Positions 2,585 through 25,945 of a stretch of DNA of 37,403 bases are shown piece after piece. How positions within the stretch are numbered: position 1 is the stretch's first letter; every line of letters begins with the position of its first letter. A program made the position numbers and the translations under genes. A model generated the notes under the pieces. It was not told the origin of the DNA. It did no database searches and worked only from the letters and a program-made list of their open reading frames with translations. The stretch comes from Halanaerobiales bacterium (GTDB lineage: Bacteria > Bacillota > Halanaerobiia > Halanaerobiales > M55B127), in contig JAIPEX010000013.1 of assembly GCA_021736945.1 (NCBI GenBank), forward strand, positions 1-37,403, read 5' to 3'.

Positions 2585-4098
<1,514 letters not shown>

Positions 4099-4104
4099 AA
4101 GTCT

Positions 4105-4179
4105 CCCTGTTAAGATTAACAGGGCTCACCCCCTCAAATTAATACTTCTCTAATGAGATTAAAAATCCTCCATTAGAGA
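4105..4179 (-). other. Structured 5' leader of the zinc-ribbon gene: two inverted repeats
   Basis: TCTCTAATG(4147-4155)/CATTAGAGA(4171-4179) and CCCTGTTA(4105-4112)/TAACAGGG(4117-4124). The second stem overlaps the AGGGAG SD 4 nt before the ATG. Confidence 0.5.
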
Positions 4180-4207
4180 CTTAAATACATTTGATTGGGA
4201 GTAATTA

Positions 4208-4582
4208 TTACAGTTCGGCTATTGCTTCGATTTCAACATTTACTCCTTTTGGAAGAGCTGAAACTTCAACAAAAGCTCTTGCTGGGGGTTCTTTTTTGAA
4301 ATTTCTTCCATAAACCTCGTTTATCTCATTAAAATATGATATGTCATCTGTATAAATAGTTGCCTTAACAACATTACTGAAATTTCCACCGGCTTCTTTT
4401 AAAATTGCTTTTAAATTTTTTAAAACTTGTTCAGTCTGATCCTCTATAGAAGTCATAATTAATTCTCCTTCTATATTTAAAGGTATCTGCCCACTTATAT
4501 ACAAAGTACTACCTGCTTTTACAGCCTGAGAATAACTGCCAATAGCAGCAGGTGCTTTATCTGTTTTTATAATTTTTTTCAT
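4208..4582 (-). CDS. ridA: RidA family (reactive intermediate/imine deaminase) protein
   Basis: 124 aa; KAPAAIGSYSQAVKAG, ISGQIPL, PPARAFVEVSALPKGVNVEIEAIA are hallmark RidA/YjgF motifs; TAATG overlap with the upstream HAD gene. Confidence 0.95.
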   Translation of the reverse strand: MKKIIKTDKAPAAIGSYSQAVKAGSTLYISGQIPLNIEGELIMTSIEDQTEQVLKNLKAILKEAGGNFSNVVKATIYTDDISYFNEINEVYGRNFKKEPPARAFVEVSALPKGVNVEIEAIAEL

Positions 4583-5310
4583 TATTTATTCACCTCAAGG
4601 TTATCTAAGTAATCAATAATATCATCACGTGTTCCCTGCCAATCAGGTTTAATATCAATATCTTTTCTTTCAACTTTAAAATCTTCAATTAAAAATGTTT
4701 TAATTCCTAATTTTTTAGCAACCATATCATCTCTCTCATCATTACCCACCATTACACAATTTTGTGATTCACATTCTATAACTTCTAATATTTCTTGATA
4801 ATAACCTGGATTAGGTTTGCAATAATGCATATCCTCATAGGAAGTAATGTAGGTGAAATCATCTGGGTCAAGGTCAATCCATTCCAATCTGGCTGTTATT
4901 GCATTTCTGGGAAATAATGGATTGGTCGCAATTACCATATCAAATCCTTTTTCCTTAGCTTTTTCAACTATTTCTTTTCCTTTTTTATCGATATCAAAAT
5001 ATTTTTGTAAACCCGGGAAAATACTATCATAAAAGGAATCAAATCTATTCCAAATTTCTTCTTTATTAGTTTTCTCTAAACTTATTAGTTCAAAGAATTT
5101 TTCGGTAAAAACTTCCTGGTTAGTTTTATTTCCATTGTTTTTAATCATATTTTCAGTGGCTTTATTAACAGCTTTAACAAAATTTTGAGGATCAAATAAA
5201 TCAGAAAAATGTTTAGATAATTGTTCAAAATATTTTTCAATGAAGTTATCCATATCCATTGGTAGTAAAGTACCATCTAAATCAAATAATATAGTTCCTT
5301 TATTTTCCAT
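4582..5310 (-). CDS. HAD-superfamily hydrolase
   Basis: ILFDLDGTLL motif I, ATNP motif II, VMVGNDERDDMVAKKLG motif IV. Confidence 0.93.
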   Translation of the reverse strand: MENKGTILFDLDGTLLPMDMDNFIEKYFEQLSKHFSDLFDPQNFVKAVNKATENMIKNNGNKTNQEVFTEKFFELISLEKTNKEEIWNRFDSFYDSIFPGLQKYFDIDKKGKEIVEKAKEKGFDMVIATNPLFPRNAITARLEWIDLDPDDFTYITSYEDMHYCKPNPGYYQEILEVIECESQNCVMVGNDERDDMVAKKLGIKTFLIEDFKVERKDIDIKPDWQGTRDDIIDYLDNLEVNK

Positions 5311-5320
5311 TAATTATCAC

Positions 5321-6088
5321 CTAATTTTTTAATTTTTCTTTCATTTTTTTAATTCTTTCTATATGATCTTCAATTTCAAAGCATTTTTGGAAAGATTCGG
5401 TTTCAAACTTTTTACCTTCATCACAGCCCTGAGTATAACCTACATTTATAGATTGTTTAATCATACCAACTGCTCTAGAAGATTGATCAGTAATTCTACG
5501 GGCTAGGTTTTTACTTACTTTTAAGAGGTCACGAGGAGTTACTAGCTTATTAACTAAACCTATTTCATATGCTTCTTCTGCATCAATAATGTTACCAGTA
5601 AAAAGGAGTTCTTTTGCTCGACCAATACCTAATATTCTTGGTAGTCTTTGAGTACCAGAAAAACCTGGGATTAATCCTAAACTTACTTCCGGTTGACCAA
5701 AACGAGCTCTAGTACTGGCTATTCTTAAGTCACAGGCTAGTGTTAATTCCATACCTCCACCTAAGGCATATCCATTAACAGCCGATAGGACAACCTTTTT
5801 TGTTTCTTCAATCATATTACAAATAGTTTTACCTTTATTTGCTATAACATTAGCAGTTTCTACATCTAATTCTTCTAAAAGTTCTATATCTGCGCCTACT
5901 GAAAAAGATTTATCCCCTCTACCGGTAATAATAACTGCATTAACATCGTCATTATTAAAAACTTCTTCTGCTCTCATTTTAAATTGATCTAATAACTCTT
6001 CATCATAGGCATTTAAAACCTCTGGACGATTTAAATAAATCGTAGCTAACGGAGGTGATAAATCTACCTCTACTCTTTTATTGCTCAT
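5321..6088 (-). CDS. Enoyl-CoA hydratase/isomerase (crotonase) family protein
   Basis: 255 aa; VGADIELLEEL, NGYALGGGMELTLACDLRIAS oxyanion-hole region and FGQPEVSLGLIPGFSGTQRL with the conserved Glu. Confidence 0.92.
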   Translation of the reverse strand: MSNKRVEVDLSPPLATIYLNRPEVLNAYDEELLDQFKMRAEEVFNNDDVNAVIITGRGDKSFSVGADIELLEELDVETANVIANKGKTICNMIEETKKVVLSAVNGYALGGGMELTLACDLRIASTRARFGQPEVSLGLIPGFSGTQRLPRILGIGRAKELLFTGNIIDAEEAYEIGLVNKLVTPRDLLKVSKNLARRITDQSSRAVGMIKQSINVGYTQGCDEGKKFETESFQKCFEIEDHIERIKKMKEKLKN

Positions 6089-12570: not shown

Positions 12571-13200
12571 CTAATTTACGGAATTATCTTTTCCTGTTTC
12601 TGATATTTTATCAAATATTTTTATTGTTTTGTCTTCCACGATAGCTAATTCACCTTCAGAAATTTCTTCTTTGGCTTGAGTAATTTTCTCTTCAATAACA
12701 GCTTCACCAGTTTGCATATAGAGAAAAGTTCTTCCTCTTATAATCTCTAATTTGAAAATGGCTTGGCTTGTAGATATTATACAGGAAGGTGTATTGATTT
12801 GGAGTTTAAAATCTTCCTTAGTATCCAGAGTTGTATTTATCCAAACTACACCTTTTTCCACTGACAAGTTTTGAATTAATGAACTAGTCTCTTCCTCTAT
12901 ACTCAATATAGTATCACCTAATATTTCGATGCGATTAAATTTTCCTATATTTAGTGAAAACATACTTTCAGGGTCAGTTTTGATAGTTTCACCAACATTT
13001 ATATTGGAATTATCTAAAATTCTTGTCCATACTACTGTTTTGAAAAAATCAAAAAACCCCTGGTCAGTTTTTCGATAAACAGTTCCTTTTAAAGAATTTA
13101 TTGTTATATTAACCTCTTCATTATTATCTTGGGCTAAAGCCGGAGTGAAAATAGTTAATATAAAAAGGGAAATCAAGATAACACTCAATATCTTTCTCAT
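12571..13200 (-). CDS. FecR domain-containing secreted protein
   Basis: Signal peptide (MRKILSVILISLFILTIFTPALAQ), FecR-like beta repeats (INTPSCIISTSQAIFKLEI); adjacent to a CHASE2-cyclase gene, a common pairing. Confidence 0.78.
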   Translation of the reverse strand: MRKILSVILISLFILTIFTPALAQDNNEEVNITINSLKGTVYRKTDQGFFDFFKTVVWTRILDNSNINVGETIKTDPESMFSLNIGKFNRIEILGDTILSIEEETSSLIQNLSVEKGVVWINTTLDTKEDFKLQINTPSCIISTSQAIFKLEIIRGRTFLYMQTGEAVIEEKITQAKEEISEGELAIVEDKTIKIFDKISETGKDNSVN

Positions 13201-13202
13201 TA

Positions 13203-14969
13203 CTATTCCCCCTTGTCTAGACTTTTAAATTCTTTTAAACTAAATACAACTAATGATTTTTCAACTCCTTCAATATCTATTTCTTTATACTTCCAATTTA
13301 ATTTTTTATAAATTTCAGCTAGACCATAGTAGGTATTCTCACCTATCAAAATTTCCTCAGGACCACTAACCTCTCCTAATTCCATTGTATTATGAACTAC
13401 CTGCCCCATTGTTTTAAACTCCATTCTCTTATTAGTACCAATATCACCTAGAATTATTTTACCGGTATTTACAACAATCGAAGGTTTTAATTCTATTCTT
13501 TCTTTTTCAAGATAATTCATAATTTCAATAGCAGCTTTAACTGCTCTATTTCTATGATTGTCTTGTCCAAAATCTTTATTCCAATATGCTAAAAGGCCAT
13601 CTCCTAAATATTTATCTATTACTCCATCATATTTAAAAATGATTTTAGATATGTTTTCATAAAAGTGATTCAAATCTTCTATTACTTTTTTTGGAGTACT
13701 TTCTTGGGAATATCTGTTAAAGTTTTCAAATTCAAATAAAATTAATGTAGCAGGTGTCTTATCCCCTTTTAATTTCAACATCTCGGGCTTATCAACTATT
13801 TTTTTAATTAAATAGGGAGAAAAATATGGTTTCAATTTATCAACAATTTCAAATTTTTCTTTTCTTCTAAATCCAAACCAACTAATTAAACTTATTATAT
13901 ATAAGATAAAAATCCCTATTAAATAGACAGATACTTCTGTAAACAAATAATGATAAATTGTTACATAGTAATTAAGGGATAATATTATTACGCTTAATAC
14001 AATAAGAGCAATTAATGATCGATATGGATTATATCTTTCAAAAAGATAAAATGCCAACCATAATAAAATGAAAGCAATAATAATAGTCTGCCATGAGCTA
14101 TTTACTTTTATAAATGTTTGATGTAAATAATTGTTAGTCATCTGTCCTAATAATTGTATTTTGCTAATACTACTATCTGGAGAAAAAATCGAAGGATAAT
14201 TTTGACTTTGATTCTTTTTAGTAACTCCAAGTAAAATAATATTATCCTTAATAAATTCAGAATTGTAATTGTCATTTAAATAATCATGTAAAGAAATTTT
14301 AGGTATAGTACCAGCAGGTCCTAAATAATTAACTAAATATTCTCCCTCAGTAATTGAAATTTCTTCCTCTAAAGCTAATTCAGCTGCCCTTCTTCCAATC
14401 GGTAGATAAGTCGTATTTCGATCTATAAAAAGGGGAGGCAAACTCCGAATAGTTCCATCCTTATCGGAAATAATATTAGTATGTCCTAACTTAACTAGAT
14501 TCATAAAAGAAGAAATTGGTGTATTTACAGAATTAACGTTATATTCTTTTTTTCTTTGAGAAATTTGATTAACACTATAATCTATTGATACAGGCATCAC
14601 AATATTCTTGTTTTCTCTTAAACGATCAATCATTAAACTGTCTGCCTGTGCTGTTCGAGCATTATCAAATAATATATCAAATACTATAACATTGGCGCCG
14701 TCATTATTTAGTTTTTCAATTCCTTCTACATAATAGCTTCTATTTATTGGCCAGTCCCCAAGTTTTTTGGTAGTAAGGTCATTAATTTCAATAATTGTAA
14801 CATCACTATTTACTTCTTCAATATCAGATAAATATTCAATTTTTTGATATGTATCATATATGTAATTATCGATTTTTGAAAAACTATTGTAATAATAGCC
14901 TAAAATTACGACAACTATTATTAAAGTGTATATTAGTATTTTTTTAGTATTAAACTGATATTCATTCAT
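13203..14969 (-). CDS. CHASE2 domain sensor with C-terminal class III adenylate/guanylate cyclase homology domain
   Basis: N-terminal TM, CHASE2 (DVTIIEINDLTTKKLGDWPINRSYYVEGIEKLNNDGANVIVFDILF), three TM helices, then cyclase-like domain (YDGVIDKYLGDGLLAYW, GDIGTNKRMEFKTMGQ). Confidence 0.88.
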   Translation of the reverse strand: MNEYQFNTKKILIYTLIIVVVILGYYYNSFSKIDNYIYDTYQKIEYLSDIEEVNSDVTIIEINDLTTKKLGDWPINRSYYVEGIEKLNNDGANVIVFDILFDNARTAQADSLMIDRLRENKNIVMPVSIDYSVNQISQRKKEYNVNSVNTPISSFMNLVKLGHTNIISDKDGTIRSLPPLFIDRNTTYLPIGRRAAELALEEEISITEGEYLVNYLGPAGTIPKISLHDYLNDNYNSEFIKDNIILLGVTKKNQSQNYPSIFSPDSSISKIQLLGQMTNNYLHQTFIKVNSSWQTIIIAFILLWLAFYLFERYNPYRSLIALIVLSVIILSLNYYVTIYHYLFTEVSVYLIGIFILYIISLISWFGFRRKEKFEIVDKLKPYFSPYLIKKIVDKPEMLKLKGDKTPATLILFEFENFNRYSQESTPKKVIEDLNHFYENISKIIFKYDGVIDKYLGDGLLAYWNKDFGQDNHRNRAVKAAIEIMNYLEKERIELKPSIVVNTGKIILGDIGTNKRMEFKTMGQVVHNTMELGEVSGPEEILIGENTYYGLAEIYKKLNWKYKEIDIEGVEKSLVVFSLKEFKSLDKGE

Positions 14970-25095: not shown

Positions 25096-25125
25096 ATAAA
25101 AAAAGACCCCGCTAAGGGCCCTTTT
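25096..25125 (-). terminator. Putative terminator downstream of the acidic secreted protein gene
   Basis: AAAAGACCCC/GGGCCCTTTT imperfect hairpin followed by a U7 tract on -. Confidence 0.55.
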
Positions 25126-25147: not shown

Positions 25148-25708
25148 TTATTTTTTACCATTGCTATTTCCGTTATTTCCACTATTTCCTTTATTTTCAT
25201 TTTTATTCTTATTTTTTTCAGCGTTTTCATTTCGGTTTTGAGCTTGTGTTGCAGTTAAGTCTCCATCGGAATCTTCTTCTTGGTCTTGGTCTTGGTCTCT
25301 ATTTCTTACTCGATCTTTATTTTTATCAAGAAATTCTTGTATATGGTCGGAAAGATCTTGTCCAGTCCAATCTCCATGATCTTCTTTATATTGTGCTATT
25401 GAAGAAGATAAATCTTCTCCGAAGCTTTCTTTATCGGTATCTTCTTCATCTTCATCTCCGTCTTCATCTAACTCTAGTTCTTCTAACATCTCATTTATTG
25501 TCGCTTCATCAACTGTTTCATTATCTTCTAAATCTTTTAAGGCATCTTCTAAAGAAGCTATTTCATCTTCGCTAAGATAATCTAAATCATATTCTTCTAC
25601 TAAACTTGTGTTTTCTGAGTCCCCATCCTCCTGTGCTAACACTGCAGGTACTACCAATAATAGCAACACCAATGTCAATGAAAGTATTTTTAACTTCTTA
25701 TTAAACAT
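25148..25708 (-). CDS. Secreted, highly acidic, low-complexity protein of unknown function
   Basis: 186 aa; signal peptide (MFNKKLKILSLTLVLLLLVVPAVLAQ), Asp/Glu-rich centre, Asn/Lys/Gly-rich tail; GAGGGGG SD before ATG. Confidence 0.85.
   Translation of the reverse strand: MFNKKLKILSLTLVLLLLVVPAVLAQEDGDSENTSLVEEYDLDYLSEDEIASLEDALKDLEDNETVDEATINEMLEELELDEDGDEDEEDTDKESFGEDLSSSIAQYKEDHGDWTGQDLSDHIQEFLDKNKDRVRNRDQDQDQEEDSDGDLTATQAQNRNENAEKNKNKNENKGNSGNNGNSNGKK
25279..25296. repeat. Short tandem hexanucleotide repeat (CTTGGT)x3
   Basis: Three exact copies, encoding DQDQDQ on the minus strand within the acidic protein. Confidence 0.9.
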
Positions 25709-25771
25709 TACATTTTCCCCCTCAATTTATAATTTTGTTTTTGGAGTTTCTTTAAATCAATAAGCAGGAAA

Positions 25772-25808
25772 AACAAAAAAGCCTATTGACTTAAAAAGCC
25801 ATAGACTT
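25772..25808 (-). terminator. Riboswitch-associated intrinsic terminator (expression platform)
   Basis: On -: AAGTCTATGGCTT-TTT-AAGTC(A)ATAGGCTT followed by TTTTGTTTTT; ~13-bp stem with G-U pairs and one bulge, starting 8 nt after the aptamer core. Confidence 0.85.
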
Positions 25809-25810
25809 AA

Positions 25811-25890
25811 AATTATGGCAGCCTGGCGATCTTAAAAATAAGATCCATAGCTTTGCGTCCCCCCTTCACAAAGGGTTTGCCTTTTTCTTC
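25811..25890 (-). promoter_or_regulatory. Cyclic di-GMP-I riboswitch (GEMM-I) aptamer
   Basis: On -: GGCAAACC (25874-25881), P2 hairpin CCCTT..AAGGG with GTGA (GNRA) loop, GGGACGCAAAGC (25850-25861), P3 helix GATCTTA/TAAGATC (25828-25845), GCCAGGCTGCC (25817-25827). Confidence 0.93.
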
Positions 25891-25916
25891 GATAATTATT
25901 TTTTTACTGTAAATTA

Positions 25917-25945
25917 AATTTATCATATTATTTTCAACAAGTCAA
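25917..25945 (-). promoter_or_regulatory. Candidate sigma-A promoter driving the riboswitch leader
   Basis: TTGACT (25940-25945), 17-bp spacer, TAAATT (25917-25922) on -, ~30 nt upstream of the aptamer. Confidence 0.6.

What the first reader, a model, noticed from the sequence alone, without database searches (positions are those of the whole stretch)
25772..25890. c-di-GMP-I riboswitch with terminator expression platform in the leader of an uncharacterised secreted acidic protein
Seen: on the minus strand, the conserved GEMM-I core (GGCAAACC, GNRA-looped P2, GGGACGCAAAGC, P3, GCCAGGCTGCC), then ~8 nt later a ~13-bp hairpin with a U-rich tail, then a 561-nt ORF. A TTGACT-17-TAAATT promoter sits just upstream. 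Known: GEMM-I aptamers bind c-di-GMP. By my alignment to the Vibrio Vc2 aptamer, the position equivalent to G20 is G here (- strand base at 25881), which favours c-di-GMP over the cGAMP-type A20 variant. Inference: intracellular c-di-GMP controls production of this exported protein. AAAAAG just 5' of the aptamer could pair with CUUUUU in the terminator loop, which would be one route to switching. The ON/OFF direction cannot be read from sequence alone.
Basis: partly seen in the sequence, partly recalled or inferred. Interest (0 to 1): 0.8.

Follow-up and report, generated by a model that had tools for sequence, protein, structure and literature searches.

The report
c-di-GMP OFF riboswitch before secreted protein
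An uncultured bacterium of the order Halanaerobiales carries an ordinary RNA switch of a well-known kind that most likely shuts off one small secreted acidic protein of unknown function when the bacterial signal molecule c-di-GMP is abundant.

Summary
Minus strand 25890-25813 is a class-I c-di-GMP aptamer (68.5 bits to RF01051, cut-off 35). It is followed by a 12-bp bulged terminator and a U-tract, then the 186-aa gene, all behind a promoter conserved in a sister species. Rfam's nominal best model is the 'c-di-GMP-I-GGC' variant (68.7 vs 68.5 bits), but the defining G at position 47 is absent: the pocket is G20/A47/C92, canonical for c-di-GMP. The genome has 18 GGDEF matches and at least two EAL domains. 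Riboswitch, promoter, terminator and gene are conserved in synteny in a second Halanaerobiales species. Aptamer and terminator share no base. The aptamer's closing strand GCCAUA, which holds ligand contact C92, is the exact complement of UAUGGC in the terminator's 5' arm. That is the architecture of the C. difficile Cd1 OFF switch, so ligand should cause termination. The protein is fast-evolving, probably Sec-exported, without Pfam or NCBIfam match; its other homologues lack the riboswitch. This is a new instance of a known riboswitch class. Ligand binding and switching are untested.

The parts
25917..25945 (-). Promoter TTGACT-17-TAAATT (TG before the -10), predicted start of transcription near 25910
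   Evidence: block conserved in sister species G001
25892..25897 (-). 5' strand of extended P1 (AAUUAU)
   Evidence: pairs with 25816-25811; in G001 the two strands differ and still pair; weak helix (-0.2 kcal/mol)
25813..25890 (-). c-di-GMP-I (GEMM-I) aptamer; G20=25881, A47=25854, C92=25818, C93=25817
25814..25819 (-). Antiterminator 5' strand GCCAUA, overlapping ligand contact C92 and P1
25798..25803 (-). Antiterminator 3' strand UAUGGC, inside the terminator's 5' arm
25779..25808 (-). Intrinsic terminator hairpin (12 bp, one A bulge); U-tract continues to about 25767
   Evidence: RNAfold; same hairpin in G001
25717..25723 (-). Shine-Dalgarno GAGGGGG
   Evidence: sequence
25148..25708 (-). 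186-aa probably Sec-exported acidic protein (signal peptide about residues 1-25, ...VLA|QE), lineage-specific family
25100..25125 (-). Terminator after the gene, so the unit is probably monocistronic

Best explanation
A single, canonical class-I c-di-GMP riboswitch of the transcriptional OFF type. Transcription starts about 20 nt upstream of the aptamer. If c-di-GMP binds as soon as the aptamer is made, C92, C93 and P1 are locked; the terminator's 5' arm is then free, the hairpin 25808-25779 forms and transcription stops before the gene. Without ligand, GCCAUA (25819-25814) pairs with UAUGGC (25803-25798), which takes away the terminator's 5' arm, and the gene is read. The secreted acidic protein is therefore made when c-di-GMP is low. 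Shown: the aptamer, its pocket bases, the terminator, the alternative pairing, conservation in a second species, and the presence of c-di-GMP enzymes. Inferred: binding, direction and physiological role.
For: RF01051 68.5 bits. Pocket G20/A47/C92. 18 GGDEF matches and 2 strong EAL domains in the same genome. Riboswitch, promoter, terminator and gene kept in syntenic order in G001, an uncultured Halanaerobiales MAG. In own transcripts of 114-126 nt the antiterminator is the minimum-energy fold, and the terminator takes over once its 3' arm exists. A P1-closed aptamer costs 6.5-9.5 kcal/mol against the antiterminator in that window, and at full length terminator and antiterminator folds are nearly equal, -34.6 and -33.9. 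Over 40 c-di-GMP-I leaders with terminators, each aptamer 3' end pairs better with its own terminator arm than with a swapped one (mean -5.7 vs -4.8, sd 0.28, 0 of 500 permutations); the own pair is among the best 3 of 40. The measured Cd1 OFF switch has the same logic: aptamer and terminator coexist, antiterminator competes (PMC9262584).
Against: No ligand or termination assay exists for this element. In G001 the antiterminator is only 5 bp and is not the equilibrium minimum. P1 is weak in both species. Energies come from a secondary-structure model without the tertiary contacts. The permutation set holds some related leaders, and its terminator finder is crude.
Confidence: 0.75

Rival explanations
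1. Same aptamer but an ON switch: ligand binding disfavours the terminator, for example through the reader's AAAAAG/CUUUUU pairing or another fold.
For: ON and OFF platforms both occur with nearly identical aptamers (PMC9262584). AAAAAG (which ends at G20) can pair with CUUUUU.
Against: Terminator and aptamer share no base, so a bound aptamer does not break the terminator. AAAAAG/CUUUUU is worth only -1.1 kcal/mol and is never predicted.
Confidence: 0.15
2. A variant aptamer with another ligand, as the top Rfam label 'c-di-GMP-I-GGC' suggests, or a 3'3'-cGAMP sensor.
For: RF03167 scores 0.2 bits above RF01051.
Against: The GGC model has G where this RNA has A (position 47, alignment). All 62 aptamers examined have A there. 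Position 20 is G, not the A of cGAMP sensors. RF01051 fits equally well.
Confidence: 0.05
3. A decaying or non-functional relic of a c-di-GMP riboswitch.
For: Homologous genes in other genomes live without it. The outer P1 pairs of the model are largely mismatched.
Against: Core, promoter and terminator are conserved in G001 while P2, the P3 loop and the extended P1 vary in ways that mostly keep pairing.
Confidence: 0.05

Closest known systems
c-di-GMP-I (GEMM-I) riboswitch, RF01051
   Same: All core motifs, P2 GNRA loop, pocket bases G20/A47/C92; score nearly twice the cut-off
   Different: Short A-U-rich P1 with a bulge; controls an uncharacterised secreted protein
Cd1 riboswitch of the C. 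difficile flgB operon (OFF switch, PMC9262584)
   Same: Terminator compatible with the bound aptamer; aptamer 3' strand forms the antiterminator with the terminator 5' arm
   Different: Much shorter platform (P1 abuts the terminator); another target gene; untested
c-di-GMP-I-GGC variant, RF03167
   Same: Overall score (68.7 bits, above cut-off 59)
   Different: Lacks the G at position 47 that, as I read it, gives the variant its name
3'3'-cGAMP (GEMM-Ib) riboswitch
   Same: Scaffold
   Different: Has A at position 20; here G

Membership tests
c-di-GMP-I riboswitch (RF01051) | Covariance-model score above gathering cut-off 35 | tested here: met
   68.5 bits
c-di-GMP-I riboswitch (RF01051) | Pocket G20, A47, C92 | tested here: met
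   25881 G, 25854 A, 25818 C; the pocket assignment follows from knowledge of the Vc2 structure
c-di-GMP-I riboswitch (RF01051) | GNRA loop on P2 and the pairs G21-C46, C22-G45 | tested here: met
   GUGA; G-C and C-G
c-di-GMP-I riboswitch (RF01051) | Host makes c-di-GMP | tested here: met
   18 GGDEF matches, 3 EAL matches in the genome; enzyme activity not testable here
c-di-GMP-I riboswitch (RF01051) | Binds c-di-GMP and changes gene expression | not testable with these tools
   needs in-line probing or ITC and a transcription assay
c-di-GMP-I-GGC variant (RF03167) | Score above gathering cut-off 59 | tested here: met
   68.7 bits
c-di-GMP-I-GGC variant (RF03167) | G at position 47 (the middle G of GGC, as I read the name and the model consensus) | tested here: not met
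   A at 25854
3'3'-cGAMP riboswitch | A at position 20 | tested here: not met
   G at 25881
Cd1-type transcriptional OFF platform | Aptamer and terminator coexist; aptamer 3' strand pairs with terminator 5' arm | tested here: met
Cd1-type transcriptional OFF platform | Ligand raises termination | not testable with these tools
   in vitro transcription needed

The most novel reading that the evidence does not exclude
The aptamer belongs to a Halanaerobiales group lying between the canonical and GGC models and senses another cyclic dinucleotide, or a mixture, to control a new lineage-specific extracellular acidic protein.
Probability: 0.05. Interest if true: 0.55.

Novelty: new member of a known kind. 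Interest (0 to 1): 0.25.

Why it matters
It ties an uncharacterised, fast-evolving secreted protein of Halanaerobiales to the c-di-GMP signal and gives a testable direction: made when c-di-GMP is low. It also shows that a top Rfam label (GGC) can be given to an aptamer without that variant's signature base. The class itself is well known.

Tried and rejected
Variant reading from the top Rfam hit: rejected, A at position 47. AAAAAG/CUUUUU switch: rejected on energy. Protein family by Pfam and NCBIfam: no match. AlphaFold2 on eight homologues: mean pLDDT 49, only a helical hairpin about 96-129 moderately confident, so no fold search was run. An 8-member alignment was too diverse for collection scans. 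A first regex count of positions 20 and 47 over whole loci was noise and was replaced. No paper on Halanaerobiales c-di-GMP riboswitches in the library. The paper that I believe defines the GGC variant (Weinberg et al. 2017, PNAS) is not held.

Full report
What is there. Reading the minus strand, cmscan against all Rfam families gives one strong match in the window, 25890-25813. The family listed is RF03167, c-di-GMP-I-GGC (68.7 bits, cut-off 59), but RF01051, the ordinary c-di-GMP-I family, scores 68.5 bits (cut-off 35) on the same stretch. The alignment shows G in the RF03167 consensus and A in this RNA at the base after GGGACGC, which corresponds to Vc2 A47. The bases that contact the ligand in the Vc2 structure (my knowledge of that structure) are therefore G20, A47 and C92, here at 25881, 25854 and 25818: the canonical set. 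All 62 aptamers I examined from this order and phylum carry A at position 47, so the GGC label is best read as a near tie of two models, not as evidence for a variant ligand.

Surroundings. The gene is probably transcribed alone: a promoter (25945-25917), the aptamer, a bulged 12-bp terminator (25808-25779), a Shine-Dalgarno sequence, a 186-aa ORF and a terminator at 25125-25100. The promoter as a consensus match is not above chance, but it is conserved in the sister species. The host is a 2.36-Mb genome assembly of the order Halanaerobiales, judged from the named sister record CAJXKY01, with 18 GGDEF and 3 EAL matches. One further c-di-GMP-I element lies on contig C79.

Conservation. In G001 (same genus) the order ABC transporter, lipid-A-disaccharide-synthase-related protein, Wzy-like ligase, riboswitch, acidic protein, MFS transporter, FeoB-like protein is the same. 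Neighbours are 82-95% identical but the acidic protein only about 60%. Core, promoter and terminator are retained, while P2 and the P3 loop differ and still form their hairpins. An A-U-rich extension of P1 pairs in both species although both strands differ (AAUUAU/AUAAUU here, a bulged AAGAAAUAU/AUAUUCUU there). Homologous genes in G004, in Halanaerobiales of another family (G029, G033, G037) and paralogues in G000 and G001 have no c-di-GMP-I element in the 1.5 kb read upstream, less where a contig ends. The riboswitch was thus gained or kept in only one branch of this protein family.

Direction. In ON switches such as pilM the closing strand of the aptamer is part of the terminator, so the two exclude each other; in the C. 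difficile Cd1 OFF switch aptamer and terminator coexist and compete with an antiterminator (PMC9262584). Here the terminator starts just after the P1 strand and shares no base with the aptamer. The aptamer's last strand, GCCAUA (with C92 and C93), is the exact complement of UAUGGC in the terminator's 5' arm. In folding of growing transcripts this hairpin is the best fold from 114 to 126 nt and the terminator wins at 130 nt and beyond. Forcing the P1-closed aptamer at that stage costs 6.5-9.5 kcal/mol, an amount that tight ligand binding could supply (inference). At full length terminator and antiterminator folds are nearly equal (-34.6 and -33.9). Across 40 c-di-GMP-I leaders with terminators, natural combinations of aptamer 3' end and terminator arm pair better than swapped ones (-5.7 vs -4.8, sd 0.28, 0 of 500). 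In G001 the same antiterminator is 5 bp and weaker. I therefore predict OFF, with moderate confidence.

The protein. It has an n-region with lysines, a hydrophobic stretch and VLA|QE, so Sec export is likely. It has no Pfam or NCBIfam match. The family's most conserved part is ...GxxLxxxIxxxK...WTGxxLxxxI..., moderately predicted as a helical hairpin; the acidic linker and low-complexity tail have low model confidence and look disordered. Other genes behind c-di-GMP-I elements in these genera include further small exported proteins, a large exported protein, a CheC-like protein, FlgB/FlgC, a methyl-accepting chemotaxis protein, a GGDEF protein and PilB (identified by reading the sequences, not by a profile search). 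A surface or matrix role is plausible but unproven.

Verdict. An authentic, ordinary c-di-GMP-I riboswitch with a compact OFF-type platform in front of an uncharacterised exported protein: new member of a known kind.

Noticed in passing
L005 (G000:C79) 3060-5370: The genome's second c-di-GMP-I riboswitch is followed, right after its terminator, by a group II intron with maturase (TIGR04416, RF00029). The related locus G001:C58 has a CheC-like gene behind the riboswitch; here no same-strand gene of its kind follows before a wecB-like ORF at 5759, so the element looks cut off from its target.
   Followed up: partly
L055, L065, L068, L076, L058, L072, L066, L067: Tandem c-di-GMP-I aptamers in the genus and in another Halanaerobiales family. 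The second aptamer's 5' P1 strand (CCUCC in most) can pair with the GGAGG Shine-Dalgarno sequence of a small exported protein, suggesting a translational OFF switch after a transcriptional one.
   Followed up: partly
L049, L051, L052, L060, L064, L069, L071, L073, L074: Nine c-di-GMP-I aptamers in another Halanaerobiales family (genus g8) have A at position 20, the base typical of 3'3'-cGAMP sensors, including flgB leaders such as L051, while the flgB leader L047 has G20. Worth a ligand test.
   Followed up: no
window 12571-14969: FecR-like exported protein next to a CHASE2-adenylate/guanylate cyclase: a probable second nucleotide-signalling unit.
   Followed up: no
window 25148-25708 versus neighbours: The acidic protein is about 60% identical to its syntenic orthologue while neighbours are 82-95% identical, so it evolves unusually fast.
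   Followed up: partly
G000:C100:3202-3284: A c-di-GMP-II riboswitch-like match (45.8 bits, below the 53.5 cut-off); clear c-di-GMP-II in sister genomes G003 and G004.
   Followed up: no
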